Source: Mytilus galloprovincialis
Lineage: Eukaryota; Mollusca; Bivalvia; Mytilida; Mytilidae
Direction of reading: 5' to 3'
Assembly (NCBI RefSeq): GCF_965363235.1
Contig: NC_134842.1
Span: 33,108,958 to 33,172,957 of the forward strand
DNA: 64,000 nucleotides
Below, one piece after another: positions 5,848 through 43,600 of the stretch. Numbering within the stretch: position 1 is the stretch's first letter; each line of letters opens with the position of its first letter. The notes under the pieces are model-generated. The model did no database searches and was not told the origin of the DNA. It saw only the letters and a program-made list of their open reading frames with translations. Both the position numbers and the translations under genes were made by a program.

Positions 5848-7434
5848 TAGTCCAAATAATTATGGCGCTTTGGAAAGCTATTATATTATATGCTTTTATT
5901 TATTGTTTTTATGCTTTAAGTTTGTTATTATTTTATGATTTTCAAGTGATTTGCTGACTCCCTCATTGCACATAGAGGCGCTTGCCACATGAACTTTGAC
6001 TCTGGAGGCTCACAGATCAAATAGATTTGCTTTCATTATATATATACTTGCATAGTGTTGGATAATCGGTTGAAAATACCAACCGATTATCTATTACAAT
6101 CGGATGACAGCAACCAACCGACTATCGGTTATAATCGCTTCATAATACCTTGCCCTTTTGTTTTTTAAATGAAATCATGCATTTAGTCTCATTGTACATG
6201 TCTAATGTGTATATTCCATATCATTGCAGAGTTTATATATTCATATTTATGATCTTTTATTTCCCTTTCATATTCTGGCGTACTAAATTATAATCCTGGT
6301 ACCTTTGATAATTATTTATTTAGCAGTTAAAACAATGAATTAATAAGAATCAAGATTCATATTAAAGATATTTTATCTCATAATTACAACATTAATTACC
6401 AACAGTGACACTAACATTTCTAAATTTCAATGGTGTCAATAAAATTTCAATAACATAGCTGTGTAAACATTTGAATGCTTCTAATTAGGAAAAGATATAT
6501 TAAGTTTTTAACTTTAAAAAATTTAAAATTAACAGAAAAAAATAAAAAATGCATTTGCATTATAATATTTACAGTAAACAAAAGGGATTAAGCCAAAGTC
6601 TGTTAATTCGTGTAGAATGCTTTTTTTTTCATTTTTGTGATCATTATTTTCTGTCAATTGTGTCATTTGTGCGTCTGAACTTATAATTGCAAGAATGCGG
6701 AATTAAAACATAGTTAAACCGTATCCGATTCGCGATTCTTATATTTATTAATGGCGGACAAATTTCGGAAAATTTACAAAAATAAACGATGTTTGGCAAG
6801 CAATTTGGAAAGGAATATGACGTTTTTTATGCTACAAATGGATAAAACATTAATAAAAGGCAATTTGCAATACGTTTTAATGAAGCAAAGAAATTATTTT
6901 GTCTAAAATCAGAATGATTTGTACGCTCTCAAGTATAAACAAGAACCAGTATTGAAAGAAAGTCTTTCATTCAAAGTTATTAATCTTAAATAACATTCCT
7001 TCAATCTGCAAATATGTATAGTCAATGCTTTTGTCACGTTTATAGAGAAGGAAATTGGTTATTGGTAATTATAGGATGTTTGACATTGTTATTGTCATCG
7101 ACTGGTATTTTTGTTATTATTTGTTTGACTGCGCATGTAAAATGCAAACCGTAAACGGACCGGAAGTTGACAAGCTAAAAGTCCGGAAACTTTAACGACA
7201 ATCGATTGAACAAAATCCCAATCGATTATCGACATCGCCAGGCCCAACCAACTGATTTCCGACTTATTCCGATCATCGGAACAACACTATACTTGCATGC
7301 TTTTTTCATTTTTGTTTGATAGTATTTGCATGATATTGCATGATTTTTCTATGTGATAGTCGATTAAAGAGCTCACTAGAGCTCATGTTTTGTCTGTTTA
7401 CTTACTTACTTTGACGTCATAATTATTTGGACTA
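5848..7434. mobile_element. Mutator-like MITE (TAGTCCAAATAATTATG ends), split by a nested insertion
   Basis: The ends are TAGTCCAAATAATTATG and CATAATTATTTGGACTA, a perfect inverted pair. The 10-bp direct repeat GCAGGGATCA flanks the element (5838-5847 and 7435-7444), the 9-11-bp target duplication typical of Mutator-like elements. Without the nested element at 6053-7289 and its 8-bp duplication it would be about 342 bp. Further copies of the family lie at 21610-21953 and 37746-37921. Confidence 0.75.
6053..7289. mobile_element. Non-autonomous hAT-like transposon nested in a MITE
   Basis: The termini are TAGTGTTG and CAACACTA. The perfect 8-bp direct repeat TACTTGCA flanks the element at 6045-6052 and 7290-7297, the target-duplication length of hAT transposons. 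Subterminal regions carry repeated ATCGGTT/AACCGAT and AATCGATT motifs on both sides. At 1237 bp with no transposase frame it must be mobilised in trans, if at all. It sits wholly inside the Mutator-like MITE and is therefore the younger insertion. Confidence 0.78.
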
Positions 7435-15019: not shown

Positions 15020-17042
15020 TTATGACGAACAGCTGACTTTTAATTGTTTTGACCATTCTGGAGGAGGTGATGCAAATCCTAAAGCCTCAGCTTCATCTTG
15101 GTATTCATATGGTCTCTCTAGTATCTTCGAAACTCGGTTTAAATATGTAAAATCGTTTTTCTCAACCTTTTCTATTACACTTTGTGCTATCCAGTTTCTA
15201 AGTATATATCGTGGGTTTGTATTAAGCATTATTTCTTTTCGTTCGTCTTCAGATTTTTGTTCTTTAAAAAATCGTTCTTTGTACATGGATATCCATTCTG
15301 TGTACCATTTATGCTTTGATAACTTTTCCAATGCCCAATAGAACCTAGTGATTCCGTAATCATTCAATTTTTTGATAGGTAACTCTCCAAGTTGTCTAAA
15401 TGTCATAGTGAAATCAGACTTATTTTCCGACATAATTTTTAACAAAATAGCTATCAGTTGCTCATCGTCTGCAACATTTTTAATATCAAACGTCAGACCT
15501 AACTTTTTAAGAAACACTTTCAAAAACTTTGTTTTATAAATATCAATATACCCGTTTAGAATTTGGCCAGCTTGTTTCTTTTGCTTCTGTGTTAATAATG
15601 GTTCCAAAGCTGCTCTAAGTTTATTAAGATTAAAGTAACCAACATCGGGTTGCTTCTCGTAACTATAGCGACCTTCGTCGTCTGAAGTATTAGGGACAAA
15701 GTCTGGATTATATTCTTCCAAAAATCCGAAAGGACCGTAATCTATGGTTATAGATAGAAGGCTGAAATTATCGGTATTACATACGCCGTGGGTGAATCCC
15801 ACTGATTGCCATAGAACAATCATTTGAGCAGTTTCTTCAACTACTGTAGAAAAAAACTCAAGGTATCGATCAGCGCTACTTACATTTATCGTTTTAAAAT
15901 AATGTGAAATAACAAAATCTGTGAGATTCTTCAAGAGTTCATACTCTTTAGAATCGGCGAGTATCTCTAATGACCCGATTCTAAACCACGATTCAGCTAA
16001 TCTCAGAACAATTGCGCCGCGTTCAGTGCGACGATGACCATCATAAAACATGTCACGTACTACTGGATCATCGCTCACCAACAAAGATGCAGCTCTGCTT
16101 GTTGGAATTCCTAAAAAAAAAATAAACAAAAGGACAATTTAATATCATTTTAACAGCACAATGATTAATTAAAAGAAATGACTTTTTGATAGTTCATATG
16201 TACGAATATCATCCAATGCAAACATATTAAGTTCTAATTATAATTGCAACTAAATGTTTTCGGACGACTGTGACATAAACTTCTACATCTGCAATCATAT
16301 CTCTTTGTGTTGTGAATTCAAAATTCCTTATTCCATAAAAAAAACCAATTTATACTCTAAACCAAACCTATAACTTGATCTGTTACTCACAATTAGAAAA
16401 CAGCACATTATTATAAATTACAGTTCAGAAGTTATGAATGATGAACCGGACGGACGGACATGGTAACTGAACAGCCCGAAAAACTTTGAAGCATGATATA
16501 CATAAAAAGTATATTTCAATAGTATCTCAATAAACATTGATTTTAATAAGATTGCACATCAAGATGCATTTGTACAATGAAACATTTCCAAAGACCTTTG
16601 GCATTACTAGAATACGGAAACTTAAATTCTGCTATCAACTAAAATAAAGGGGTGCCTATGCACCAGCAAACCATATGTCAACCGTTACTGTTTAAAAAAC
16701 AGAACATCTTCACAAACACATCTAATAAGGAAAACTTTGCTTTCATAGATGAAAAATGTCAGATTCTCCTTACAAACTGAAAAGCGGAAAGTATGGTTTT
16801 TAATGTAACTATAGAAAAAACAATAGTCTAGAAATAAACATGTTTAAAATTGACATTTAAACACCGTAAACATGCAAATCCACTGAAGCATTAAATTATT
16901 GATTATATATATATGATAAAACGGTACACGTGCATATAACAGGAACTTCAAAGACACCTGGCACTTAGTCATAGTTACTAAACTTTATGAACAACATATA
17001 AATATAACATTCTAATTAGTCACAGGAAGTTGAAAAACAACA

Positions 17043-17432: not shown

Positions 17433-20400
17433 TCTAAAGATTTGCACAACGGTACTGATATAAGATGTTATAATACGAAAATGTTGTTATTAAATCGTGC
17501 TGACAAATATTTCGGCTCAACAAATGGCCTTCTTCAAGTGTCACAAGTTTTAACAATACTGATACATAATGTATAAGGTGTAAAAATAGATCAGTAATAA
17601 TACAGGTAATTTATTGATAACTTTAAGTCGGACATTATTAGAAATACTAAAAATAACAATAAACCTTTTGACAATCTTACCAATGAAGAACGGACTGCAC
17701 TAAAAAACTTACGATCTAACAACAATATCGTCATTAAAACTGCAGACAAAGGCAGTGCAGTGGTTGTCATGGATAAATCTGCCTATATTCAAGAGGCTGA
17801 ACGACAACTTGGCGATGCAAGGTTCTACCAAAAACTAGACTGATCCTACAACATCTTTTAGCAGAGAAATTACTGATAGTTTGGTAGAAATGCATGACGA
17901 TGGTTTCATCGATGACAAAACTCTTGAATATTTGAAACCAGAAAATCCAAAACCGGGCAGATTTTATCTTTTACCTAAAATTCATAAGGCCAATAACCCA
18001 GGAAGACCTATAGTTTCAGCGAACGGTCATCCAACGGAAAAAATATCGGAATTTGTTGACTTCCATCTTCGTCAACATGTTGAAGACTTACCATCTCACA
18101 TCAAAGATACAACCGATTATCTAAGAAAAATGCAGGCCTTAAATCCACTCCCCTCCGACACGACTCTTGTTTCCATGGATGTCACCTCCCTCTACACTAA
18201 TATTCCACATGCAGATGGCATCGATGCATGTAAAGAAGTTTGGAATTCCAGACCAGTGAAATATCCACCTACCGAATGCCTTGTCAAAATGCTCACGCTG
18301 GTACTTAAGAAAAACAACTTCACTTTTGATGGAGATCATTATTTGCAAGTAAATGGAACTGCCATGGGCACCAAAATGGCTCCGTCATATGCCAACATAT
18401 TTATGGGCAAATTAGAGAAACAACTCCTTGAAACTTCCATCGAAAAACCGCTTTCCTGGTTTAGATTTATAGATGATGTGGATATGAAATGGAATAAAAG
18501 CGACGAGGATTTAGATACTTTTATCACTCATGCCAACAACATACATCCTAGTATCAAATTTACTCATGAGGAGTCTAAATCCAAAATCGCCTTCCTCGAT
18601 ACTTCAAGTTCGCTCACAGAGGGCATCATATCTACAGATTTATATTCTAAACCCACTGACACTCATCAATATTTGTCCCCTAAAAGTTGCCATCCTGCTC
18701 ATCTTACAAAGAGCATTCCATACAGTCAGGCACTTAGAGTCAAGCGAATATGTTCCAACACAGAAACAACTAAAAGACAACTACGTCAACTTGAAACTCG
18801 CTTGAAGAAAAGGGGCTACAAACACAGAAATATCAAAAAAAGCTTTCAGAAAGCGGAATCAATTCCCAGGAGTGAACTATTGGAATACAAAGTTAAAAAG
18901 AAAAATAAAAGGACTCCATGTGTTCTTACTTACCACCCATCTCTCAAAAACAGCTTTGGTGTCATTCGTGAGCATTGGAAATCAGTTGAAAAGAATTCCA
19001 AACTATCCAAGATTTTTCCCGAGCCTCCAATGATAGCTTTTAGGCAACCTAGTAGTCTGCGGAACCTGCTGGTGCGGGCTGAAGTGTCTGATAATAGAAG
19101 TACTTCTGGAGAATGTCGTTCGTGTGAAGAAAAACGCTGCAAATGCTGCCTACAGATGCAGCATTCATCAACATTTCACAGTAAGGCAACCGAAAACAAC
19201 TATAAGATATTTTGCAATGTTACCTGCAAAAGTATGAATGTTATTTACATACTAGAATGTTCGGTTTGTGGCCTCCAATATGTTGGTGAGTCAAAGCAGC
19301 CTTTCCACAAACGCCTCAATGGCCATAGGAGTGATATCTCTAAGAAGCCACTTCTCCCAGTTTCTCAGCACTTCAGACAGTCGGGTCACAAACCTGATGA
19401 CTTTAACCGCATGAAAATTCTAGTGATTGAACAGAATATTCACTGGAGTGATGCCCAGCGACAGGTTCGGGAAAGCTTTTGGATAAAGGAACTTAATGTA
19501 CATCATCCAAACGGCATCAATAAGAAATACTAGCGTTTTTGTTTTTTCACTCATTTTTATTGTTAATATACACAGTCACGTATATTGATTTATAGTGTTT
19601 TGTTTATATTATGATATTCAGGCTTTTGGATTAAAATCAATCGACCAAAATTTACCTGTATTATTACTGATCTATTTTTACACCTTATACATTATGTATC
19701 AGTATTGTTAAAACTTGTGACACTTGAAGAAGGCCATTTGTTGAGCCGAAATATTTGTCAGCACGATTTAATAACAACATTTTCGTATTATAACATCTTA
19801 TATCAGTACCGTTGTGCAAATCTTTAGACTGATATAATTTTTTCCTTATCTGCATAGTATCGCCTATTCTAGACGATCCGGTACATAGTAAATTTGCTGG
19901 TTGGTCGTTTTTATAGACTTTTATATATATATATATGTGTTTTTCTGACACAAAAAAAAATGTATGATTGATCAGCATGCTTACTGTTGTGTGCTTAACC
20001 TACAGTTCCAAATATTTAAGCATATTTATGACGAGCACCAATGAGAACATTATACAATAAGTAGGCACGAATCTGGCCTGCAAATATAAAATGAGGATAT
20101 TTGGATGGAGAGTTGTCTCATTGGCACTCACACCACATCTTCCTATATTTATATTGGATATGCATGATAGGGCAGAAATGTTGCCTTGCAACAGGTCATC
20201 TATAGCGATCCCACATAGCTTGCATGAACATGCAAGCTGAATTGGCACTCCCCTACACGGGACATCAAATTTAACATCTAAATTCCAACTAGATGCCGTG
20301 TCACCAATTAAATATATACATATAAATGAGGCATGGGGCAGGATTGCATTTGGGTTTTGTATGAGAAAAAATATGATGGGATGATATTATAATAGGCAAA

Positions 20401-21115
20401 TGATGACAGCTATAGACCCTTCATTTTGACGTTTGAAATGCATTCCATATAGTTATCTAAGAATTACCACAATATATCATTGTCACTTACCAAGATAAAA
20501 CATAGCCTCACTGCAGAGAAATTCTCTCACAGATGATCGTATCACAGCCCGGCCATCACCACGTCTTGAATATGGAGTCAAACCAGACCCTTTCAGTTGA
20601 AGTTCGTATCGCTCTCCACGTTGGTTGACATATTCTCCGATCATTACAGCACGACCATCCCCTAGTTGTCCAGACCAATATCCAAACTGATGACCTCCAT
20701 ATCTATGGGACAGCGAGGTTGTGAGCAATTTTTTACCTCCTGCAAAGGCCACAAATTCACCTGTCAATGCAACGGTTGGGTCCAAGTCCAAAATATTACT
20801 TAAAACATAATTTGACACTGCTGCTAATTGAACATTAGACTTCAAAGGAATCGGTCTTACTGCTGAAAATACACAATCGGAAACTCTTCTTACATAGTTC
20901 CTAGTCTCCTTTTCTATAGGAAATGATTGTTGTAGAAGTTGATTCTTTGCAAGATTCCAGTCAGCAAAGTTCGCGTGTACTTTTAAATGTAAATGACAAG
21001 TGTCATACTTTATAAACTTTTCGAGCAGGCTGATGTAGTCACACGTCAACTTGTTGCTTGTTTTAATGGTATTTGAAAGAGTTAGTAGTGTTATCAACTT
21101 GAACACGTATTTCAT
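15020..21115 (-). CDS. SELENOO: Selenoprotein O homologue (protein AMPylase), cysteine form
   Basis: SelO has a pseudokinase fold with inverted ATP binding; it transfers AMP to Ser/Thr/Tyr of redox proteins and is mitochondrial in animals. Coding exons: 21115-20491 (donor GTAAGT) and 16110-15020 (acceptor TTTTTTTTAG). The phase-1 junction rebuilds [11 protein letters not shown], giving 571 aa (human 669). K175 (LQLKGSG) and E198 (VREFLCSE) match the nucleotide-binding Lys/Glu pair; D322 and N323 (NTDN) and D332 (TIDYGPFGF) match the catalytic Asp and metal-binding residues, with family spacing kept (23 and 10 residues). Motifs YGGHQFG and SRRGDGRAV are intact. The hydrophobic start [13 protein letters not shown] may act in targeting. 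The C-terminus is ...KVSCSS: Cys (TGT) replaces the vertebrate Sec, and Lys the partner Cys. The 4.4-kb intron holds a SINE and a Penelope-like element. Confidence 0.93.
17043..17091. repeat. (TA)n microsatellite, tail of the SINE
   Basis: This is an uninterrupted TA run of about 48 bp. It directly follows the 3' end of the minus-strand tRNA-SINE and is probably its simple-repeat tail. Confidence 0.8.
17092..17354 (-). mobile_element. tRNA-derived SINE
   Basis: On the minus strand, TGGTCTAGCGGG (17227-17238) is an A box and GGGTTCGAATCCC (17168-17180) a B box, spaced as in a tRNA gene; the head resembles a tRNA but is not a clean cloverleaf. A body (ATTTGCGAAAGCAAATTTAC, then TTGGGTTGATGTTTAGACG) and a (TA)n tail follow. 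About 110 bp precede the A box and include ATCGGATCGCCATCAATGAT. It lies in the SELENOO intron in the same orientation as the gene. Confidence 0.75.
17355..17425. repeat. (TA)n microsatellite between SINE and Penelope-like element
   Basis: About 70 bp of pure TA directly abut the left inverted end of the Penelope-like element. Insertion of the latter into an existing TA tract is the simplest reading. Confidence 0.8.
17426..17610. repeat. Left inverted terminal repeat of the Penelope-like element
   Basis: This 185-bp segment is repeated in inverted orientation at 19652-19836. On its minus strand it carries the hammerhead-like string GAAGAAGGCC...GAGCCGAAAT at about 17502-17539. Confidence 0.85.
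17881..19533 (+). CDS. Penelope-like element protein: reverse transcriptase plus GIY-YIG endonuclease
   Basis: The open frame encodes about 550 aa. RT motifs: FYLLPKIHK (28-36), GRPIVS (41-46), [11 protein letters not shown] (99-109, first catalytic Asp D100), [17 protein letters not shown] (159-175), and FIDD (196-199, catalytic pair). A Cys-rich linker [12 protein letters not shown] (412-423) precedes the GIY-YIG nuclease: VIYILEC..CGLQYVG (454-469), the R479/H482 region, and E531 in ESFWIKEL. The first codons are not a true start, because homologous coding text continues upstream to about 17640. The element replicates by target-primed reverse transcription; the enzyme acts on its own RNA and on chromosomal DNA. 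Confidence 0.85.
19652..19836. repeat. Right inverted terminal repeat of the Penelope-like element
   Basis: This is the inverted copy of 17426-17610. The string TTGAAGAAGGCC...GAGCCGAAAT at 19724-19752 resembles the two conserved boxes of a hammerhead ribozyme, a motif known from terminal repeats of Penelope-like elements, but the first box deviates from CUGANGA. Confidence 0.85.
20086..20145 (-). repeat. Fragment of the 'AAGATGTGGTATGAGTGCC' dispersed repeat
   Basis: The minus strand reads AGGAAGATGTGGTGTGAGTG followed by CCAATGAGACAACTCTCCAT. The same text occurs at 23086, 58590, 62287 and 63257 among others. Confidence 0.65.
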
Positions 21116-21405
21116 AGCTACATGTATGTTTGTTTATAGTTGAGTTTTACTTAAAATTCTACCATCATGGAAATGCCCTTAAGCGATCTGCTAAAAATAT
21201 GTCAGATCATGCCACTTTGCTATTTTCGAATTAGTTTTTAAAAATAAAAAATGATTGTGTGGCAGACTATTGGATTCAAATAATAGCAAACATCCCCATA
21301 TTTGTTGACATAAAATGCCAAACAACGAAAGACAGTATTCTTAAATAATTCAGTCAATACAAGAGAGATAACTCTACAGGAAAATTAAAATTAACATGGT
21401 TAAAA
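21116..21405. promoter_or_regulatory. Probable bidirectional promoter between SELENOO and BOLA2
   Basis: The start codons of the two divergent genes are 290 bp apart, so both 5' UTRs and promoters must lie here unless upstream noncoding exons exist. I see no TATA box at a convincing position and no CpG-rich core. Confidence 0.55.
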
Positions 21406-23849
21406 ATGGCAATTACTTGTAGTCAGCTTGAAGACAAATTTAGATCCCAGCTTGGCGCCACACATGTTGTGAGTATTGTACAGTAAATATATGTAACAGC
21501 TAAAATCACAAACACTTGTCATTGCAGAAATGTTTTTAAAATATCCACTATTTAAAGTCAAAATCTAGAACAAGGCAAACATTTGCAATGAGCATGACGA
21601 GCCAAGCACTAGTCCAAATAATTATTACAATGGAACCTTCTCCCAGTAGCTGCAGTTCAATGTACTACTCTTGAAAGCTTCCGAGAACAGATTCCAATAT
21701 CTGTATAGTACAAAAACAGAAGAAAAAGAAATTATGTTGAAATTTTTATTTTTATTTTTTTTTTTTTGTATATTATTCACTGTAAATGAAAATTAGATTC
21801 CACACAAGCGCGGCATAGTAAAATCAGTGCCCGGCACGTTATCATCAGTATGTTGATGGAGTGCTGAATTATAAAGAAGAAGAAGACGTTGTAGGAAGGC
21901 GTCCCAGAAAAAAATTAAAATAGCCTTGCCAGACGTCATAATTATTTGGACTAGCCAAGCCCTATGAATATACCTATATTTCTGCTTTGCAATATATTTT
22001 TTTTTAATTCAATAAAATAAAAAATAACGTTACTATAGTCTGAGACAGTACTATAACACAGTACCTCTATACAAATCCTTAAATTTTGTTTATCCCTTTT
22101 TGTCCCAAATACATGAAATATTGTGGTCACATTTAAAAAAGTTTTATATTTATGGTACTCCAAATAATTATGACGTCTCGAAAGGCTATTATAATTTTTT
22201 TCTTTGACGCCTTACTTCCCCCTACGACCTTTTGACCTGCGCCGCCATATTGAAAATGACGTTAAAGTGTTGATACAAGTATTGTGGTCACATTAAAAAA
22301 GTTTTATATTTATGGTAGATCATAGGCATAAGTTTCCCCCGAGATATATTTTTTTAATGTATAATAAAAAGGATGGGTCACCGTGTTATTTTTTAAGCTA
22401 TGAGTTGTTGAAATTTTTTTTAATTTGCTTAGAATGTTCATGCAAATTTAACTCATCTTGCTCATTTTTATGCATGAGATAGAATTTTGAAATTTTATAA
22501 ACATGATAAAATGTGACAATATATGTTCATATAACAGTTTTGACCCTGATTTTGTGGATCACTAAACATAGACGCATCAAAGTGGGGATCCAGAACTTTT
22601 CATAAGGGAGGACCGCTCCCGTTATGCTTCATTGATTTCCTATATAATCAACCAAAATTTTCCAAGGAAATCCTCCCGCTCCTTGATCCGCCTATGCATC
22701 ATGATATTCAAGATAGTGTGTGCAAGGCATTATGATGTTCTGGGACATGTATTCTTGTTTAAACTGATGTATTTGGTCTTATTGCTATGCATCAAATATT
22801 CCATAATGTTGTGAAGTATGTTATAGATAAGTTTGATATTACTGAATACACTGAAAAGTTACTAGTTTCCTTTCACTTTGCAGGATGTTGTGGACATGTC
22901 TAATGGTTGTGGGTCAAAGTTCAAAGCTATAATTGTATCACCTCAATTTGAAGGCAAACCATTATTACAAAGACACAGGTAATTGATCATGTTGAAATTG
23001 ATATAAAGTAAAGAGATATCGAATGGGATGTAATAACCATATATTTATTATGTTTATTATTTACATGTATATTTATTTAGATATAGGAAGATGTGGAATG
23101 AGTGTAAATGAGACAACTCTCCATCCAAGTCACAATTTATAAAAGTAAACCATTATATGGGTCAAGGTACGGTCTTCATCACAGAGCCTTGTATTGAAAA
23201 GCTTGATGCTAACATTTTGCATTTAATTGCCATGTAGTTAACTTGAGCAAAAATAGAAAGAAAATGCAGGATTTTGATGAGTTAATTAGAAAGTTATAAA
23301 AAGTGTTTGTGACTAATGGCCTTTGAATTGCACTTGTGTGAAGAAAAATGCAAGTTTGAACATTTCACTTCTTTAGCTGTTATAAGGTTTATTTCCTATA
23401 CAAAAATAGGCAGGAGTTTATATTCGAAATATTTTTTGCTATATATATTTTGAAGATATGCACCTCAAACACAAGTGTTATTATCATAAATATGGCCTTT
23501 CATACTACAAATCATCACTTAGTGTTTACTGTAGGAAATCAAATATCAGTGAGAAATAAAAAATGTTTGCCCTAAAAAAAAATTAGTTAAACAATAATAA
23601 TAATAAAAAAATTCACAGTTATGCAGTTATTATTCCATGGTGTAGTTTTATTGATCTAGATATTGGTAAGGCTGACTTAAATCTTTCTGAAGTGTCTGAC
23701 CACAGTGTATTATACATAAATAAAATCTTGTTTTTATTTCCAGGTTAGTGAACTCTACCATTGAAGAAGAAATGAAAATCATACATGCATTTGAAATGAA
23801 AACTTGGACACCTGATCAGTATGAAAAACAGAAGAATAATGCTGGATGA
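21406..23849 (+). CDS. BOLA2: BolA-like protein 2
   Basis: BOLA2 pairs with monothiol glutaredoxin 3 to bind a [2Fe-2S] cluster and deliver Fe-S to cytosolic targets. There are three coding exons: 21406-21468 (donor GTGAGT), 22884-22978 (donor GTAATT) and 23744-23849, all with AG acceptors and matching phases, giving 87 aa (human 86). Conserved text includes [14 protein letters not shown] across the second junction and IIHAFEMKT with the cluster-ligand His67; Cys30 in NGCGSKF sits where human BOLA2 has its loop cysteine. The first exon ([12 protein letters not shown]...) was chosen by phase and by fit to the BOLA2 N-terminus; an ATG at 21396 in another frame ends after 8 codons. AATAAA at 23932 is a likely poly(A) signal 83 nt past the stop. 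Intron 1 contains several MITEs. Confidence 0.92.
21610..21953. mobile_element. Mutator-like MITE (TAGTCCAAATAATTATT ends) in BOLA2 intron 1
   Basis: The ends are TAGTCCAAATAATTATT and CATAATTATTTGGACTA. Flanking 9-bp duplications are GCCAAGCAC (21601-21609) and GCCAAGCCC (21954-21962), 8 of 9 identical. The right interior (GGAAGGCGTCCCAGAAAAAA) recurs in the copy at 37746-37921. Part of the interior resembles a LINE tail ending in AAGAAGAAGAAG. Confidence 0.75.
22118..22317. repeat. 39-bp direct repeats around a MITE-end fragment
   Basis: TATTGTGGTCACATTTAAAA with the following AAGTTTTATATTTATGGTA occurs at about 22118-22156 and, with one T deleted, at about 22279-22317. Between them lies CTCCAAATAATTATGACGTC, the left end of the Mutator-like MITE family. 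This is either a local tandem duplication that included a MITE end or a repair scar. Confidence 0.6.
22579..22695 (+). mobile_element. MITE with CAGTGGCGGATCC ends, degenerate copy
   Basis: AGTGGGGATCCAGAA at the left and GATCCGCCTAT at the right match the ends of the copies at 9741 and 50114, as does internal CCTATATAATCAACCAAAAT. The 5-bp repeat GCATC flanks it (22574-22578 and 22696-22700). It lies in BOLA2 intron 1. Confidence 0.65.
23086..23200 (+). repeat. 'AAGATGTGGAATGAGTGTAA' dispersed repeat in BOLA2 intron 2
   Basis: The unit AAGATGTGGAATGAGTG, AATGAGACAACTCTCCATCC, GTAAACCATTATA and CACAGAGCCTTGTAT also occurs in nearly the same order at 58590-58705. Confidence 0.65.
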
Positions 23850-31618: not shown

Positions 31619-34600
31619 ATGGCGGGTAATATTGAAAGTCCCCTATTAATCAGAAATGAAAATGGATTTTCACCCTCAGGTATTTATTATTAATGTGCAT
31701 CTCTTTTTGAAACACTTAAGATTGACTATTTATACTGGCTAGTGACATTGCATTTTAATTGCTACATTGAAAAAATAGTGTTGTGGAAAGTCAGTGAGAT
31801 AATACTAATAGTTTATTTTTGAGTAGATAACAAGGGTTCAATTAGTCCAAATGTACCAGTGATAAATAAAACCTGACAAGTTTGAAAATACACAGTCACT
31901 TCTATGATCCAAAGAAAGAGACGCACAGCCTGTCAACTGTCACAATATACCACACTAGTCACTTATGCTTAAGCATGAAAGCAAATTTACAAAATTTTGA
32001 GAAATTTGATTTGGCAGGTAAGATTCAATTAATACAGGGTGTGTTTTTATTGGTTAGTTTAATGCCCTGATGTCAGTGTCGTTTCCTAAGACACATTAAT
32101 TTGGTTTCCAGACAATAACTTTAGTTTAAGTGAATAGATCTGTATGAAATGTATTCAGAAGGTTCAATACCACAAAAAGGAAGGTTGGGATTTATTATGG
32201 GGATGATGGTCCCAACCGTTTAGATAAAAGGGGCCCAAAACAAGCATTTTTGGTATCCGGTCGTTCCGGCCCCAAACCGATCCGGCCCCAAGTCAATCCG
32301 GCCCAAAGTCGATCCGGCCCAAGTCGATCCGGCCCACGTCGATCCGTCCCCACGTCGATCCGGCCCCATAATAAAATATGAATTGACTATATTGATTTTG
32401 GAGGAATTTGTCACACAAACTTTAACAGTATAAATGAAATTTGAAAAAAGTATCCGATCGATCATGGATGACAACAGGTCAGTGAAGTATTGGAGTACCA
32501 GTTAAAGAACTATTTTAAAACGATATGAAAATTAGTGTTATTGTGTCTGTTTGTATCACAGTTTCTACATTTTTAAATTATGAAGTTATTTTCCATGATA
32601 ATTTTTACTTTGAATTTCATGGCGATTTTTATTTTATTCAGTTCACAAACAGAATAGCTAAATAAATATTTACAGTCCAATGGACCTATAAAATTTAACG
32701 CATCATTATGACTTATTTAATCAAATCATTAGTCTATAATTGGTTTGTTTATTCAACAATTGTCTGATGATTGTGAACTAAGGTAATGCCACTCGTAATC
32801 ACTTAATTCAATCCAATGCTGATTAATTAAAGTTACGTAATCTGTTTTTCAACAAGGTCTTTATAGTTTGATCTTCTGGTTGGTGTATATCTTAATAATT
32901 ATTTGTATTTTTTTAGGTTACATCATAGGCTTCTATAACATATAAAAATATTCTATTCTATTCTATAACACTTTTTTTTGTAACATCGGATATGGCCGTC
33001 AATTTATTTTTCTTATTTTGACAATATTTTGAATAGTTGTGTGTAGATAAAAAAAAAAAAAAGTCAAAGAAAACAACAAAACAATGACATTGAATGCACG
33101 TTTTCACTCTCTAAAATATAATATCAGCACTCTTTTATAGAAAGGATTCGGCAAATCAAACAACATTTCTCAATTTTAGAAATTTTAAGAACTTAAAAAG
33201 AAAAACAAAGTTTATATGTATCAGCTTGGGGATCGGCTTGTACCGTTCATGTATGTAACTATTTGTTATTACATGTTACACAAGATGAAAGACTTGTTAG
33301 GATCACAGTCAATTGAAAGAAAATGCTAATTACTGCTGATTAATGTTGATGTCTGAATTCTTTTATATACGTTTTAATATAATTATACCAAATAATCTTG
33401 AAAACTTGTAATAAAGACATAATCAACCTAGTTGTTTTATACTCATCTAAAGAAAATATTTTTCAAAGGCCTTTTTTACTTTTTTTTTACCGTACACCTT
33501 TAGCATTATAATAAAAATAATAAACATTTATGAATTACAATTAATATATATTTATTTTTATTCCTTAGAAATTATTTTTTTTATTGGGGCCGGATCGACT
33601 TTACATATGGGCCGGATCGACGTGGGGCCGGATCGACGTGGGCCGGATCGACTTGGGCCGGATCGACCCGAAAGCGCATTTTTCTAGTTTCAAAATAATT
33701 TCTAGTGTATTAAGTATTTTGATTGCTCTGAAATTGTACCACAATGTTTAATACCACAAGTAGAAGGTTGGAATTTATTTTGCACGGTTTTGGTGCCAAC
33801 AGTTTAGAAACCTAAGGGCCAAAAACAAGTATTTTTGTAGTTAAATCAAATCCAGGCAATAACTTGTGTTTAAGTGAATGGATCTCTCTGAAATTGTACT
33901 ACAAGGTTTCATACTACAAAGGAAAGGCTAGGATTGAGTTTGGGGGTAATTGCACCATTGTGAATTCTAAAAGATAGAGGGGGGGGGTTCTCTATTTTTT
34001 TTAGTTCATATTTTTTTCAAAATTTTTCAAATTTTAAATTTTTTGAAAAGTTTCAAGAAGAAATCTTCAATTGCACAGGGTTGCACGATAAATTTATCCT
34101 TGTCAGACCAATTCTATTTTTGTGTCAGAAACGTTATTATGTAAAAAAAAAATTATCAAAATTCAAATTCAGACATTCTCAAGCTTGAATTTTGTGTCTA
34201 AATTTGCTAACTGTTCAGGAATCGACATTTGGGGTCGTTTCAGGTTTATATAGAAACCTTTGATCAATTTTAATGAAATAAAACTATACATATCAATAAG
34301 ATGTAAAATGCTCTTCATTGTTCAGTAATAAAAAGTATGATGCCCGAGGAACAACAGAAAAAAGGAACAGGCGTCAATAAAAAAGGGCGGAAGCTGCCCT
34401 CTTCAAAGGTTGTAGCTAGAACACTGTTTATTTTGGTTTTTAATGTCTATTTCAGATGAAGACCAATATGATGTTCCATCAAACAGAATACACAGTAATG
34501 GTGACTCTATTTATGATGTAAACAATGGTTTTGGATCTAACCATCAGATTTTGGAGGGCCAGGGCACTCCATACCATGCCATCACTAGACGACATAAACA

Positions 34601-37600
34601 GTATAAAACTTGGGAACTGAATTACCAAGAGGCAGCTATATATCTGCAGGAAGGGGAAAACAATGATAAATATAGTACACATCCCAGAGACTTTAATGCT
34701 TTGCCAGCGTATAAAATTGCTCACAAGAAAATTTTCTATGCTTTAGACTTATTTGCAGCACTGCTGGTAATGGGATTAGCTGCCTGTGAACGACCAGCAG
34801 TGCCATTTTTAACTCTCCCTGTAGGGGTAAGTTACCATGTAATTGTTAATTGTTATTGTCTTTTTAATTATTGACTGGTAAATTCAACAAGCATTTTCAG
34901 AAAGCTCAAGTCTTTTGATTATAAAAATTTCCAGCAAATTTAAACTGAGTCTTTTATGAAGGAAAGGAAAATACAGTATCATTTTCATTGTATGTTTTTC
35001 ATTGCCTTTGTAAGATGTGCTAGTCTTATTCTTTAAAAAAATATTGTTAGTGGTCAGATATCAACTTTTTACCATAAATAATTCAAATCATGACAGAATC
35101 ATGAAAATCAGACTGAATAAGCAGAAAGCAAGCATAAACATGTATATATATATAAAGCCATTTATTAGTTTTCTCACTTTAAATTAAAGTTTAATTTATG
35201 AAATACCTTTGTGCAACAATAATATAGATTATGGCTCCTGGAAAATGTACAGTTAAGTCAGGTATAAAATGTGTCTTTGTATTAGATGTATTATACAGGT
35301 TCATGGATCACTGGAATTGTTTGGACTTTTGATATTAGCCTTAGAGTTAGGAATACGCATGAAGTGGTTAGGATTCAGAACATTCATCAAACATAAAAGA
35401 ACTCTTATAAAGGTATGTAGATTTATTAATGATTTTTGTCGAGCCTGCAACTTTTGTTGCAGAAAGCTCGACATAGGGATAGTGATCCGGCGGCGGCGGC
35501 GGTGTTAGCTCACTTCTTAAAAGCTATATATTTTAGAAGGTGGAAGACCTGGATGCTTCATGTTTTGTATATAGATGCCTCATGTTACGAAGTTTCCGTC
35601 AGTCACATGTCCAATGTCCTTGACCTCATTTTCATGGTTCAGTGACCACTTGAAAAAAAAGTTCAGAATTTTTGTAACGTTGAATTCTCTCTTATTATAA
35701 GTAATAGGATAACTATATTTGGTATGTGCGTACCTTGCAAGGTCCTCATGCCCGTCAGACAGTTTTCACTTGACCTCGACCTCATTTCATGGATCAGTGA
35801 ACAAGGTTAAGTTTTGGTGGTCAAGTCCATATCTCAGATACTATAAGCAATAGGGCTAGTATATTTGGTGTATGGAAGGACTGGAAGGTGTACATGTCCA
35901 ACTGGCAGGTGTCATCTGACCTTGACCTCATTTTCATGGTTCAGTGGTTATAGTTAAGTTTTTGTGTTTTGGTCTGTTTTTCTCATAATTTATGCAATAG
36001 GTCTACTATATTTGTTGTATGGAATGATTGTAAGGTGTACATGTCTAGCGGGCAGATGTCATCTGACCTTGACCTCATTTTCATTGTTCAGTGGTCAAAG
36101 TTAAGTTTTTAAGTTTTGATCTTTTTATTTAATATTATAAGCCAAAGGTCAACTATATTTGGTGTATGGAAATATATTATGATCTATATGTCAGTCCCGC
36201 AGGTTTTATTTGACCATGACCTCAATTGCACGGTTCATTGGACAGTGTTAAGTTTTTGTGTTTTGGTCTATTTTTCTTAAACTATAAGTAATAGGTCAAC
36301 TATAATTGTTGTATGGAAGCATTGTTAGCTGTACATGTCTACCTGGCATGGTTCATCTGACCTTGACCTCATTTTCATGGTTCATTGGTCTTTGTTTAAC
36401 TATCTTGGTTAAAGTTAAGTTTATGTGACAGTTGTAATAACGCTTTATACTTAGGACTATCAACATAATATCAATGATTAGTAAAGAAGGCGAGACATTT
36501 CAGTGTGTGCACTCTTGTTTTTTGTATCAATAGAAATAATTATTTATAGACAAATGATTATTTTTATGCCCCAGTTTTTCGGTGTTTGTGCGTCTGTTCG
36601 TTTGTTACTCCTTTCCTTTGTCTGTCATGCTTCAGGTTACAGTTTTTGGTCAAGGTAGTTTTTGGAAAATGACGCAGTCATTGTTCCATTACTGGCGACC
36701 TGAACTTCATTACATTTCTCTGCCTACCGCGCTTGGTTTCGTATTTACTATTTTCTATACAAACTGGAATCTGCTTGTGTTATCATTAATTATGCATGAG
36801 AGGTCATTGTGTAGTAATCAGAACCAGTTTACAAACTAACTGGTTTCTGCTTGTATTCCACTACACTCGGACAAAGTGTTGTAGTTTGACGGGAACCAGT
36901 TTAGAATTTGTAAACTACAAAACGTAATCGGTTATTGTTCATTCCGTTTTGGTGTTTCATACCGACTTTTATGGTTTGAATAAGCTTAAGACCCTTCAAA
37001 CATTAATGTGATAGGTATATTAAAGACTGTTTTACAAAAGGATGGAACTGTTTTGCTTTCAAAGTCGTACTATAGTGATATCTGTTATGTACGGATTTCC
37101 ACTCTCACCGGTTAATTTCTTTTTTTACACGTGCTTTTGAAACTTCCTGTTTAAACATCGCAAGTTTTAAAATTGTTTTTTGAGTGAATTTAACTTATTT
37201 TAACAATCATGAAGCGTTCCAGAATCATTTTCAAGCCGTTTCTTTTTCTCTTTGATGATGGAAAATAGGTTTTTCTCAAGAAAATACTGCAAACGATCGC
37301 AGGGGAATTGAAACGTACAAGTCAAGTCGGCACCTGGTTAAATTGGCATCTAGTCAAATCGGCACCTATTTGACGTCAATTCGGCATCCAATAATATTTG
37401 TTATAATATTTTCTATTCAATTAATTAATAACTGTTACCAAGTACATAGTGAATATGTTGTTGTGTATTTAGGTAAACAACGAAACCAAAGTGAAATTAT
37501 GTTGTTGTGTATAAAGGTAAACAACGAAGCCCTTACCCAAGCTGTTGTTTTAACAATTAGACAATTATTAAAAAAAAAATGGAAAACTATGAGTCCCTTT

Positions 37601-40600
37601 CAATAAATCAAACTTTCATGCCAAATAGTAAGCAAATTTAAGGTGTTTTTTTTTTCAGTAAAGTTTAAAAAGCATTAAACAAACAATCCTGTAAAATGCT
37701 CAACTGGTTTAAATAATGCATAAAAATATCCAATATCTCATGTATTAGTCCAAATAATTATGACGTCTGGCAAGGCTATTTTATTTTTTTTCTGTGACGT
37801 CTTCCTACGAAGTTCTTAGGAAGGCGTCCCAGAAAAAAATTAACATAGCCTTGCGGTCATAGAAAGGTGTCCCAGAATAAAATTAAAAAAGCCTTGTCAG
37901 ACGTAATAATTATTTTGACTACTCATATATATATCATTAAAAATACACCAAAAATGTCATTTAGTTGAGAAAAATAAATTTATACAAAATGTACAATGAA
38001 CACCCAAAAATGTGAAAGTTAGTATTTAACTCTTTTTGCTTAAATACTGAAAAAAATTCTGGCAACCCCTTACTTATTTTTACTCTTTTTGCTTAAAATA
38101 CTGTTAAAATATATATTTAACATGGATGACGAATTGACTAGATCAGGTGTCGATTTAACCAGGTGCTGATTTGTCCAGGTGCCGGTTTGACTAGAATTCT
38201 TTGACAAATGTTTGAAATTACCTGAGTTTCATTAGACCTTTGATAACAGTAACAAAAAGATTATTTACTTAATATTTTGTGGTATCAGGTCTGTTTGCGT
38301 CCAATACACTTTCGCACCTTGCAGGTTTGCACCTCGCACGTTCGCACCCAAGGTCCGTTCGCACTCTACTCATTCGCGCTCAATTTTAATTCAAATTCAA
38401 GTTGAATAATTGGAAAATCATGATTGTTGTTTTAAATTGCTTTGGTGTAAATACTGAATGTATTTATAGCTTGGTATGAGTAAAACATTGAAGATTTTAA
38501 AGGAAAAACACAAAAGATAATTGTTTTTAACAGCTTGGTCCCTTTGATCTGAAACAACGAAACAATAAAATATAGGAACCAAAATATAGCAATCCACTAT
38601 TATAACCAAAACATGATAAAATCTATTCAACACACAGAAAAAAACATAGTCAGAATCTCACTTCATTTTGAAAGAAGTCAATGAAACAAAGTTATAGCAA
38701 CCAAAACATGATTAAGAGTTATTCAACACAAAATAAAACGTTGACAAAATACCACTTTTATTAGAAAGGATTATTATTATTTTTAACAATACGCTATCCA
38801 AAACATGATTAAGATTTATTCAACACAAATAAAAATGCTGTCTCACTTTATTTTGAGACAATGACAACAATTATACTTATAAGAAAACACTTGCTTACAG
38901 AGTTATTAAACACAAAACCAATTAAGATTGGGTACGAACATTTAGGGTGTGAAAGTGAAAGGGGGCGAACATGAGTGGGCGCGAACGACCCGGATTCAGA
39001 CTATGTACCAGTGAGAAATATACAAGCCTTTCTACGGTATTTATTTGTACAATTCAGGTAGTCTTGACCTATTCATTTGTCTTAAAAAAACAGCCAGTTG
39101 TCACCTTCACTTCACACACACACATATATACGAATATCAATTATATGCTTACGAGACATGTTGCATTGTTAAACTAATTACGGTATGTGAAAATCAAGAC
39201 TTGCATAAAAACTATCCCAATATTAGAGACAGTGGCGTCATTTTTCTTCAGAGCTTTCAGCTCTTTGATTAATGAAGTTGAAGTCCAATCAACTTGAAAC
39301 TAAGTATACCTGTACCCTATGGTATGATCTTTCTAATTTTAATGCAAAATTAGAGTAAGTTTGATGCAAAATTTCAAGGTCCACTGAACATAGAAAAGGA
39401 TAATGCGAGTGGGGCATCTGTGTAATATGGACACATTCTAGTTTTAATGATAGTACAAATTTAACTGAAAGTTAATAATAAAATTATTTTTCAGAGTTGT
39501 ACTTTGATCATCGTATTTATAGAGACTATAGTTGTGATAATACGACAGCATAACCATTTTAGAGTCACAAGATCACTGAGGCCATTGTTTCTCATAGATA
39601 CATACTACTGCAGAGGGGTCAGAAGGTATGTTTGTTAATATTAAATTTTACCAAATTGTTGAAGCGATAATTTCTAATCATGCTGATAGAGGGGTCATTG
39701 AATATTCAGCAGTATAATATTGTGTGCTATGGAATTTTGGAGAGACTAACTACTTGCAATACTCTATTATGGTCAAGGTACCCATATTTCATGGTTCACT
39801 GATTTGACACATTGTGTATATTTAAGTTTTACATCAATCAGAGTTCAGGTTTTAGACACAAACTGACTTACAATCATATAACTTGTTTTTAAGAATGCAT
39901 TATTTCACTGTTTCACAGATTCAACATAATTATGGAAATGGATTAAAATAGAGTTTTCTTGTCCTTCTATATATAGCTAGATCTTCTTAAAGAACAGTTA
40001 TTTTAAAGAGTTCACATCAATCTTAAGTGTTTATAATTTCCCTCTTAAGAAACACTTTAGAATTTAGATTACTTTAGTTTCTCTGAGTGACAGGAAGCAA
40101 CCAGTTCAAATAAATATTGATTAAATTTTATCCTTATTTTCAAAATTCCAATTAAATTTTAACTGAACTAAAATGATGTACTAGCTAAGTGTTTTATAAA
40201 TAAAGTTCAAGGATTTTCATTTCAATCTAGAGCTTTTATTATTTAATATTTTAAAATATTCCAACAGAATTTACAGTATGTGTCTAATGTTATTAGCTCA
40301 CATGGCCCAAATAAACTCATCATAGATACCAGGACTAAATTTTCTATATACGCCAGACGCGCATTTCGTCTACAAAAGACTCATCAGTGACGCTTGAATC
40401 CAAAAAAGTTAAAAAAAAGAGTAAAATAAAGTACGAAGTTGAGCATTGAGATCCAAAATTCCTAAAAGTGTTGCCAAATACAGCTGGGCTATTTTAATCA
40501 CACGCTGTCTGTTAACATTTACCAAGATTTCCTTTGAAACTACCAGTCTAATTGGAACCAAACTTTGTAACATTCATGCCAAAATATGTTGTATAAGGCT

Positions 40601-43600
40601 TTACCATCTGTTTTACCTTTTGTCATGTGTATATTAGCTGTATTTGGCAGAACTTTTAGGAATTTTTGTCTTTAATGCTCTTCAACTTCGTACTTTATTT
40701 GGCCTTTTTAACTTTTTTGGATTCAAGCGTCACTGATGAGTCTTTTGTAGACGAAATCCGCGTCTAGCGTATATACAAAATTAAGTCCTGGTATCTATGA
40801 TGAGTTTATTTTCTACATTTAAAAGCTGAAATTGTTTTGTTTTGTATTTATTTCAGAACATTCCGACAGATTTTACAGTCCATGCCACCTATTATAGACA
40901 TGTTGTTGTTGTTATTGTTTTTCATGTTGATATTTTCTATATTAGGTAAGCTCTATATTACATCTGTAAGTAAGCCTATTGAACCCTAAAACTTTTATCT
41001 TATTGAGAGTGAAAAACATCACCTGATTGAAATTTCAAACTGAGACAGTATTACAGAAGCAAAAACAACATAAAAGCAATGAACAAACAATTGAAGATCA
41101 AATTAAGATGTGGTATTATTGCCAATGAGACAACATTTTGCCAGAGACCAAATGAAGTATTAGAAGCTGAAGTATGTTAATAGGTCAAATTTAGACAAGT
41201 AAATTCTATGTGGTATAAACTAATAACATTTCCAATTTTCAGTTAATTTTCATAGATAAAATCATAATTCTTGCATGTACATTTCATAGCATGGAAGTTT
41301 ATGTATCAAATATTAATTTAAGGAGGCTCGAGGGTATAAAAATTTCAGAAAAAAATCAAACATTTGTTTTTCATTACAAATTTTATTTATTTCCTTTTGT
41401 AGTTGCTACTTTATCATATGGTACAAAAATCATTCAAAACAATCACTTCGTGTTGGCCCCAGATGACTTTCAAAATGTATACATCAGTGAAAAAGTTCCA
41501 AATTATCTCCCTTTGGTGTAAAAATGCCATTTTTTGGCTCTAAAATTGAAATATCTTTTTCAACTCATCGGTGACCTATCTTTTTTAATATAATTTCCAT
41601 ATAAGCTGTACTTAAACTAAATTATTGTAAAATTTTAGCGATTTCTGTAATAAATTTCCCTTTTTTTATTTCGATATTACCTTTATTTCTCCTATTACTT
41701 CAACAGAAAAAAACCACCTTTACAAAAATGTATGCTTCTTTCGAAGGCAGATTGTGAGCAAAAATGAACGGTGACCCCACTTTTTTATTTTATTTTTCTA
41801 TTAACTATAAGATAAAGTTCATTTATAGAAAAATATAGAGAAATCCTATATAAATGATTTAGACCCGCGAACCCCCTTAAAGTTAACTAGAGCCTGTGAG
41901 GTGATGGTTTAGGTAAACTAGGATGACAGCTAGAAATAAGATAAAAGTTAATGTGTTGCTGTAATGTACAGATTTATAGTGCCTATCATTTTTGACAATG
42001 AAATCACTTCCAGAAAATTTTACTGTAAAAATATAATTAAAAGTCTTAAAAAAAGAAATCTTACATATTGCTTTGTACAGTAGCGAAAAAAACTGGAAAC
42101 CATTATAATATGAAATAAATAAAATATTATTCATTCTTTAAAAAAATAATATGAAAATCAATGTTAATGTTAATATTATATACACATGGTTTAATTGTAG
42201 GGTTTTATTTATTTTCTGGGATTCATGGGGATGCAGTAAGTATGAATATTTGTTATAAAATATAAAAACAACAAGTTCCTGTTATAAATTTCAAACGTTC
42301 AAAGCTTTTTTTCTGGATTTATTATCTCCAGGTATGCTCAAAGGCGAAAATTTACAAGCCAAGGGTATATATAAACATCATAGATACCAGGATTGAAATT
42401 TTGTATTTGCCCCGGACCAGACACGAGTTTCGTCTACAAAAGACTATCAGTGACGCTCGAATTTAAAAAAAACAAAAAACATTTGTAGACCTATATAAAC
42501 AAAAAGGACATCAAATAAATAGCCAAATCACTATCTCAAAGTTCAACTTTGCCTGACACTTTTATGTATATAGGTATTCAAGTATTTCTGTTCATTTTAA
42601 TTGTGTAGACCAATTTAGTTTAAAGTTGTAGAGTTATTCATTGAAAATATAAATGAATTTTATTTCTCATAAAGTACAAATTACATAGTTACAGAGAATA
42701 TATAAACAATACATTAAATATTGAAGCACATGTGAACAATACAATCATAAACATTAAATTACAAACTAACCAGAAGGAGTGACCCTCACATTTATAATTT
42801 TTATAAATCTACAAAGTTTTTCAAGAACAATATAATTATTAGAGCTCATCAATTGTTGATATTTATAAATATTTGGACGATGAGTACAATAGTATGGTAA
42901 CAACATCTTTCTTTCTTGATTCAGAGCATTACATGACGTAACATAATGATATTCATCACCTACGTCTCTTGATTCGCAAAGATGGCACAACCTATCATTT
43001 CTTGATATGTTATTCCACCTTCCCGTCTCGATAGGTAATTGGTGACTCCCAAATCTAAATTTACACAATATAAATTGATTATATATTGATAATTTGGAAA
43101 AATAGCTTTCTAATTTAATATCAGTTTTAAAAATTCTATAACATAAGCGTTTAGGAGTAGTGTTAATTTCGCTTAGGCAATTCTGCAAAAACTGGTCTTT
43201 AAGTTTCAACTCAATACTTTTAATTACCCATGTATCTAACATTTGGTTCAACCAGATATTTGACATTCCACAGGTATCAAAAACACTTTTTACAAATGAT
43301 ATCCATTTACAGTTAAGACCATAGTTATGAAAATACAATAGTTTATATAAAAGACATGAAATTTTACTTTCTTTACCACATAGTAATCTACATAAGAAAC
43401 TAACCATACGAACTTTGACATTAACAATTACAGGATAATTACCCAATTCCGCATAAACAATACAGCTAGGTTTACTCTGTTTTAAATGAAGAACAAGCTT
43501 ACAAAATTTTAAATGTACACGTTCTATCAATTCAAAATTTTCAAATCCCCAAATTTCAGAACCATAAAGAAGAATAGGTAAAACTATCTTATCAAACATG

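What the first reader, a model, noticed from the sequence alone, without database searches (positions are those of the whole stretch)
32252..39000. Three neighbouring elements with different sequences but the same 16-bp inverted-array end architecture
Elements A (32252-33675), B (37321-38191) and C (38288-39000) end in inverted arrays of 4-7 units spaced 15-17 bp, with unit cores GTCGATCCGGCC, GTCAAATCGGCACCT and GTTCGCACC. Units align loosely as GTC-NN-(A/T)TC-(C)GGC-(A)CC. In A (right side) and B (both sides) the innermost step is widened to 21-22 bp. Outer ends of A and C share GGTATC(C/A)GGTC. The pattern suggests one transposon lineage whose transposase-binding arrays diverge quickly in sequence while phasing is kept at about 1.5 helical turns. 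Three such elements in 7 kb of one gene's introns is striking.
Basis: partly seen in the sequence, partly recalled or inferred. Interest (0 to 1): 0.8.

Follow-up and report, generated by a model that had tools for sequence, protein, structure and literature searches.

The report
Mobile DNA with phased repeat ends
Three short pieces of apparently mobile DNA sit in the introns of a calcium-channel gene of an animal, probably a mussel; each ends in mirrored rows of short repeats spaced about 16 bases apart that may serve as docking sites for a cutting enzyme, and one of them is shown by its footprint to be an insertion.

Summary
A scan of the 64 kb for phased arrays with an inverted partner returns A, B, C and one TA microsatellite, against 0 loci in 400 dinucleotide shuffles. 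Element A is an insertion: 32252-33675 is flanked by a perfect 8-bp duplication (GCATTTTT), and a 72%-identical copy of the flanking host repeat at 33729-33942 aligns without a gap at the point where A sits. B and C have the same end layout but no target duplication above chance, so they are probably older, decayed elements. The interiors show no match better than E 0.57. Ends of A-B and A-C resemble each other modestly (p 0.001-0.013 against random sites); B-C hardly (p 0.10-0.15; 0.04 by the weakest control). "One lineage with fast-changing arrays" is therefore only partly supported. Best reading: non-autonomous cut-and-paste transposons whose inverted arrays bind a multimeric transposase. 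The 8-bp duplication and CGG/CGC unit cores make hAT the best single lead, but A's tips and target site do not fit it cleanly; Zisupton/Dileera, MULE and others stay open. No animal genome could be searched, so copies, an autonomous partner and family membership are untested.

The parts
32252..33675 (.). Element A, non-autonomous DNA transposon with both ends
   Evidence: 8-bp TSD and related empty site; inverted arrays
32244..32251 (+). Left target-site duplication of A, GCATTTTT
   Evidence: identical to 33676-33683
33676..33683 (+). Right target-site duplication of A, GCATTTTT
32252..32368 (+). A left end: tip GGTATCCG plus 7 units of GTCGATCCGGCC, steps 15-16
33588..33675 (-). A right end: 5 inverted units, innermost step 22, tip GCTTTCGG read inwards
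33729..33942 (+). Neighbouring copy of the host repeat that flanks A, without an insert at the corresponding point (related empty site)
   Evidence: 72% alignment over 217 columns, 14 gap positions, none at the junction of the joined flanks
37313..38199 (.). Element B, inferred limits; no TSD found
   Evidence: inverted arrays; limits by alignment of tips; TSD test negative
37321..37389 (+). B left array, 4 units GTCAAATCGGCACCT, steps 16,16,22
38124..38191 (-). B right array, 4 inverted units, steps 16,16,21
37747..37921 (.). Palindromic MITE-like element nested in B
   Evidence: inverted self-match and similar stretches elsewhere in the window; ends judged by eye
38281..38997 (.). Element C, inferred limits; no TSD found
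   Evidence: inverted arrays; tips; TSD test negative
38293..38380 (+). C left array, 6 units of GTTCGCACC, steps 15-17
38931..38986 (-). C right array, 4 inverted units, steps 15-16

Best explanation
A, B and C are non-autonomous cut-and-paste DNA transposons (0.7-1.4 kb) with AT-rich interiors without a recognised protein domain and GC-richer ends. Each end is a short tip (about 8 bp, loosely G-N-N-T-N-C-N-R) followed at once by a row of 4-7 direct units of 9-15 bp at steps of about 16 bp (1.5 helical turns); the two ends are inverted. Shown: A inserted with an 8-bp duplication. Inferred: a transposase made by an autonomous relative elsewhere in the genome binds the units as a multimer, lines up the two ends, cuts at the tips and inserts across 8 bp. 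The number of units is flexible: in A, left units 4-7 match right units 1-4, so the left end carries three extra outer units. Units have a CGG core (A, B) or CGC core (C), triplets often preferred by one group of hAT-derived BED/Hermes DNA-binding domains whose specificity differs from protein to protein; such a switch would explain unlike units on a like spacing. Rough odds: A is a transposon 0.97; B and C are too 0.85; arrays bind transposase 0.65; A, B and C share a transposase lineage 0.5; that lineage is hAT 0.3.
For: TSD and related empty site for A (identical flush 8-mers in 16 of 200,000 random position pairs; 8/8 reached in 3 of 400 random trials that were allowed 528 boundary choices each). 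Inverted phased arrays: 0 of 400 shuffles. A's arms match over 59 nt at 98%. In B the innermost left and right units agree 14/15, while each agrees only 10-11/15 with the other units of the opposite end, and both follow the widened step, so the two ends probably descend from one array. Outer 22-mers: A-B p 0.003-0.004, A-C p 0.001-0.013 against random or GC-matched GTC sites. GC of ends 0.46-0.68 against 0.25-0.27 inside. Four reading frames overlapping A and B gave no Pfam match at E up to 1. Hermes (hAT): 8-bp TSD, subterminal repeats mostly in one direction at each end (PMC10368747, passages). hAT-derived CGGBP domains usually prefer CGG or CGC, most differ in specificity, and the motifs of the four hAT proteins match subterminal regions of their own elements (PMC8097297, passages). 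hAT is present in all mollusc genomes analysed in PMC10294476 (passages).
Against: No TSD for B or C: best match 6/8 over 529 and 572 boundary choices, the commonest null result (225 of 400; 95 of 400 did better). B-C end similarity is weak (p 0.10-0.15 against random sites, 0.044 against composition shuffles). Interiors: no match between elements better than E 0.57. A's tips (GGTATC, GCTTTC) do not look like usual hAT tips (CAGGG or TAGGG, recalled), and A's TSD has C at position 2 and T at position 7, where Hermes prefers T and A (PMC8721813, passages). Even in Hermes only three left-end repeats were seen bound, right-end repeats were not, and mutating inner left repeats left about 70% activity, so rows of repeats need not all be binding sites. 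In PMC8097297 two insect hAT proteins preferred AT-rich motifs. No transposase was found, and the source genome is not held.
Confidence: 0.65

Rival explanations
1. Three unrelated DNA transposon families, each with its own subterminal array; similar spacing reflects a common solution (stacking protein at 1.5 turns) rather than shared ancestry.
For: Interiors without a match better than E 0.57, unlike units, B-C ends hardly similar, TSD length known only for A.
Against: A-B and A-C outer ends resemble each other; the A and C left tips share 10 of 11 bases; A (right) and B share the widened innermost step.
Confidence: 0.4
2. The arrays are by-products of replication slippage at inverted repeats (foldback or satellite-like growth) without a binding role.
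For: Unit number differs between the two ends of A and outer left units lack right partners; Tetris is an example of a foldback transposon feeding a satellite (PMC4079207, seen in search listing only); in Hermes not all repeats are bound.
Against: Arrays start right at the tips of A, occur at both ends of all three elements, and A's unit cores are kept (5 changes in 144 bases) while its spacers vary in letters and length. Slippage would also homogenise units, so this is not decisive.
Confidence: 0.2
3. A Mutator-like (MULE), Zisupton/Dileera, Merlin, P or Novosib transposase moves them, not hAT.
For: MULE TSDs are 8-11 bp and Spectre has 8 bp (PMC6446971, passages); Zisupton and Dileera give 8 bp (PMC12730594, passages). 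The G-starting tips do not suit hAT. Mussels are named among the best hits of Zisupton-like proteins in PMC9297572 (passages). Merlin, P and Novosib are named from memory.
Against: No coding evidence for any of them; contiguous 16-bp arrays are not described for them in the passages read; PMC10294476 reports Zisupton, Novosib and Merlin types almost only in cephalopods among the molluscs it analysed, though its curated bivalve library holds three Merlin elements (passages).
Confidence: 0.45

Closest known systems
hAT transposons with subterminal repeats (Hermes; Ac/Ds and Tol2 by mention)
   Same: 8-bp TSD (A); many short repeats near each end, mostly one direction per end; CGG/CGC cores preferred by one group of hAT-derived domains
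   Different: Hermes repeats are 4-bp motifs that mostly do not align between the ends; here 9-15 bp units run contiguously and phased from the tip; tips and TSD of A do not match the hAT pattern; no transposase seen
MULE / Spectre / Rehavkus
   Same: 8-bp TSD in Spectre, 8-11 bp in MULEs; Rehavkus has a minisatellite before its 3' TIR
   Different: Rehavkus TSD is 9 bp and the minisatellite is described at one end; no transposase seen here
Zisupton / Dileera (KDZ)
   Same: 8-bp TSD
   Different: No array ends described in the passages read; no transposase seen here
ATon elements of Aedes aegypti
   Same: Non-autonomous families with similar tips and unrelated interiors, autonomous partner unknown
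   Different: AT target, TIRs of 15-17 bp in the two first families, no phased arrays described in the passages read
CACTA/En-Spm and Tn7 ends (recalled)
   Same: Inverted sets of several transposase-binding sites at both ends
   Different: TSD 2-4 or 5 bp; comparison from memory, not tested

Membership tests
Non-autonomous cut-and-paste DNA transposon | Target-site duplication flush with the ends | tested here: met
   A: 8/8. B and C tested and not found
Non-autonomous cut-and-paste DNA transposon | Empty site without the element | tested here: met
   A only: 33729-33942 aligns through the junction at 72%. B and C: no empty site found in the window
Non-autonomous cut-and-paste DNA transposon | Inverted ends | tested here: met
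   A, B, C
Non-autonomous cut-and-paste DNA transposon | Multiple copies in the genome | not testable with these tools
   No genome held; no further copy seen in the 64 kb window
hAT | 8-bp TSD | tested here: met
   A only
hAT | TSD bias T at 2 and A at 7 (Hermes) | tested here: not met
   GCATTTTT has C at 2 and T at 7; one site only, and hATx-6 shows less bias
hAT | CAGGG/TAGGG-like tips (recalled) | tested here: not met
   A tips GGTATC and GCTTTC
hAT | hAT transposase in an autonomous relative | not testable with these tools
   no animal genome collection
MULE (Mutator-like) | 8-11 bp TSD | tested here: met
   A only
MULE (Mutator-like) | MULE transposase in an autonomous relative | not testable with these tools
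   no animal genome collection
Zisupton/Dileera | 8-bp TSD | tested here: met
   A only
Zisupton/Dileera | KDZ transposase in an autonomous relative | not testable with these tools
   no animal genome collection

The most novel reading that the evidence does not exclude
A, B and C are members of one undescribed transposon lineage whose transposase reads a fixed ruler of sites about 1.5 turns apart starting at the tip, while the site sequence itself is free to change, so that new families arise by switching unit sequence together with the DNA-binding domain.
Probability: 0.25. Interest if true: 0.65.

Novelty: new variant of a known kind. Interest (0 to 1): 0.42.

Why it matters
If confirmed on genome copies, the array ends give a spacing-based signature for finding transposon families that sequence similarity misses, and a natural series in which transposase-binding sites changed while their layout stayed. 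That would let one test how transposases and their ends co-evolve. If A, B and C are instead unrelated, they are ordinary intronic transposon relics with a convergent end design.

Tried and rejected
Searching the source genome: none is held. Array patterns of A in viral contigs and of B: 0 hits. Pattern of A in genome contigs: 30 stretches listed (possibly a listing limit), titles all bacterial or archaeal, GC 0.58-0.77. Pattern of C in viral contigs: 30 stretches listed (same caution), in steps of 15 bp; a 16/17-bp variant gave one contig, L061. Of these 61 loci, 48 hold a chain of 3 or more phased units at the tolerance used, and in all 48 the longest chain lies in an open reading frame reaching up to 60 bases beyond it, as coding repeats would (in GC-rich DNA open frames are common anyway). 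2 of 61, L003 and L021 (GC 0.77 and 0.68), hold a convergent pair of chains with 3 mismatches in 12 allowed; I take these for chance in GC-rich bacteria and did not look further.

CpG decay as the reason why B and C units differ: not supported; CpG transitions are no commoner than other changes (B 2 at 16 CpG sites against 14 at 104 other sites; C 3 at 20 against 11 at 70). The C figures came from misaligned units and are replaced.

TSDs for B and C: best 6/8 over all boundary choices; random trials gave 4, 5, 6, 7, 8 matches in 1, 79, 225, 92, 3 of 400; not claimed. Joined flanks of B and C found no empty site in the window. Arm-against-arm alignments used shuffles that destroy the period, so they are only supporting; shuffles out of 300 reaching the score: A-B 0, 4, 0, 27; A-C 43, 8, 286, 8; B-C 10, 255, 3, 107; within elements 0 for A, B and C.

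Literature: ten counted searches. Only the listed rows were seen (for example 20 of 114, 20 of 83, 20 of 48, 15 of 138). In these listings and in passages of ten papers I saw no description of such contiguous phased array ends; no paper of the library prints any of six typed unit strings. Repbase, Dfam and supplements were not searchable. No paper was read whole. The novelty label therefore rests on a limited search.
Full report
What is there. The three elements exist at the stated places. A has 7 left and 5 right units (core GTCGATCCGGCC), B 4 and 4 (GTCAAATCGGCACCT), C 6 and 4 counting weaker ones (GTTCGCACC), in inverted orientation at the two ends. Steps are 15-17 bp, except for the innermost step of A right (22) and of B left and right (22, 21); C has no widened step. 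A scan for phased arrays with an inverted partner within 6 kb, with the step range taken from the finding, returned 4 loci in 64 kb: A (7+5), B (4+4), C (3+4) and a TA microsatellite; 0 of 400 dinucleotide shuffles returned any. With one more mismatch allowed the scan loses power (16 loci, shuffle mean 9.05).

A is an insertion. GCATTTTT stands on both sides of 32252-33675. Joining the flanks and removing one copy gives a sequence that aligns at 72% (217 columns, 14 gap positions, none at the junction) to the next copy of the host repeat at 33729-33942, a related empty site. Identical 8-mers at two random positions occur in 16 of 200,000 draws.

B and C are probable insertions. Their ends have the same layout, but over all boundary choices the best 8-mer match is 6/8, the commonest result for random places (225 of 400, with 95 of 400 better), and I found no empty site for them in the window. 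B contains a nested palindromic element with similar stretches elsewhere in the window, and C contains roughly 97-bp tandem copies, so both interiors have been reworked. B's and C's units are more diverged (16 of 120 core bases; 14 of 90) than A's (5 of 144), which fits greater age but does not prove it.

Are they one lineage? Aligned on the outermost GTC, the six ends read GGTATCCGGTC, GCTTTCGGGTC (A), ACGTACAAGTC, GAATTCTAGTC (B), GGTATCAGGTC, GAATCCGGGTC (C). Against random or GC-matched GTC sites of the window, A-B gives p 0.003-0.004, A-C p 0.001-0.013, B-C p 0.10-0.15; against shuffles that keep only composition, 0.00005, 0.00005 (the floor of 20,000 trials) and 0.044. The alignment was chosen after looking, so these values flatter the claim. 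Between the interiors no match is better than E 0.57. I put shared transposase ancestry at about one half.

How it probably works. In A, left units 4-7 match right units 1-4 over 59 nt at 98%, while three outer left units have no partner: unit number can change. In B, the innermost left and right units agree 14 of 15, but only 10-11 of 15 with the other units of the opposite end, and both follow the widened step, so both ends probably descend from one array. In A, cores are kept while spacers change letter and length. This suits sites for a multimeric transposase stacked at about 1.5 turns, with the tip as cutting point; this step is inferred, and Hermes shows that not every repeat of such a row need be bound. 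CpG decay does not explain the differences among units.

Which transposase? Eight base pairs fit hAT (Hermes, PMC10368747, passages), Zisupton and Dileera (PMC12730594, passages) and MULEs such as Spectre (PMC6446971, passages); Merlin, P and Novosib are further candidates from memory. For hAT speak the CGG/CGC cores: hAT-derived CGGBP domains usually prefer these triplets, most differ in specificity, and the motifs of the four hAT proteins occur in subterminal regions of their own elements, though two insect hAT proteins preferred AT-rich motifs (PMC8097297, passages). Against hAT speak the tips and the TSD letters. Four reading frames overlapping A and B gave no Pfam match. hAT is a lead, not a classification.

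Setting. Exon 2 of the host gene matches two-pore channel 1 (6c96, E 5.8e-23; no Pfam match for this exon alone); a predicted first exon 31619-31679 joins it in frame, so A lies in intron 1 of the predicted gene. B and C lie in the intron after the exon ending near 35413 (by eye).

Limits. No animal genome, Repbase or Dfam was available. Pattern scans of viral and prokaryote collections gave nothing or 61 loci of bacteria, archaea and virus-collection contigs. In these, 48 of 61 hold a phased chain, all 48 in an open frame, and 2 of 61, both GC-rich bacteria, hold a loose convergent pair that I take for chance. Copy number, TSD length of B and C, and an autonomous partner therefore remain open.

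Noticed in passing
37747-37921: Palindromic MITE-like element nested inside B, seemingly TA-flanked, with similar stretches at 21891-21953, 22145-22216, 7413-7434 and 5848-5885.
   Followed up: partly
38604-38917: About 97-bp tandem copies inside C.
   Followed up: no
32107-32251 and 33684-33945: Host repeat of about 160 bp in tandem-like copies, interrupted by A.
   Followed up: partly
35691-36390: 147-bp tandem repeat, about four copies, in the intron of the TPC1-like gene that also holds B and C.
   Followed up: no
40309-40811: Inverted repeat with 107-nt arms, 96% complementary, with further similar stretches near 42369-42479.
   Followed up: no
17839-19533: Long ORF with reverse transcriptase and GIY-YIG domains (Penelope-like by recall), lying between two SelO-matching ORFs of the opposite strand at 15020-16138 and 20483-21133.
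   Followed up: no
L061:3101-3140: Contig of the virus collection with GGTGTTCGCACC units 17 bp apart between two ORFs; each unit could form a small TTCG hairpin (by eye).
   Followed up: partly
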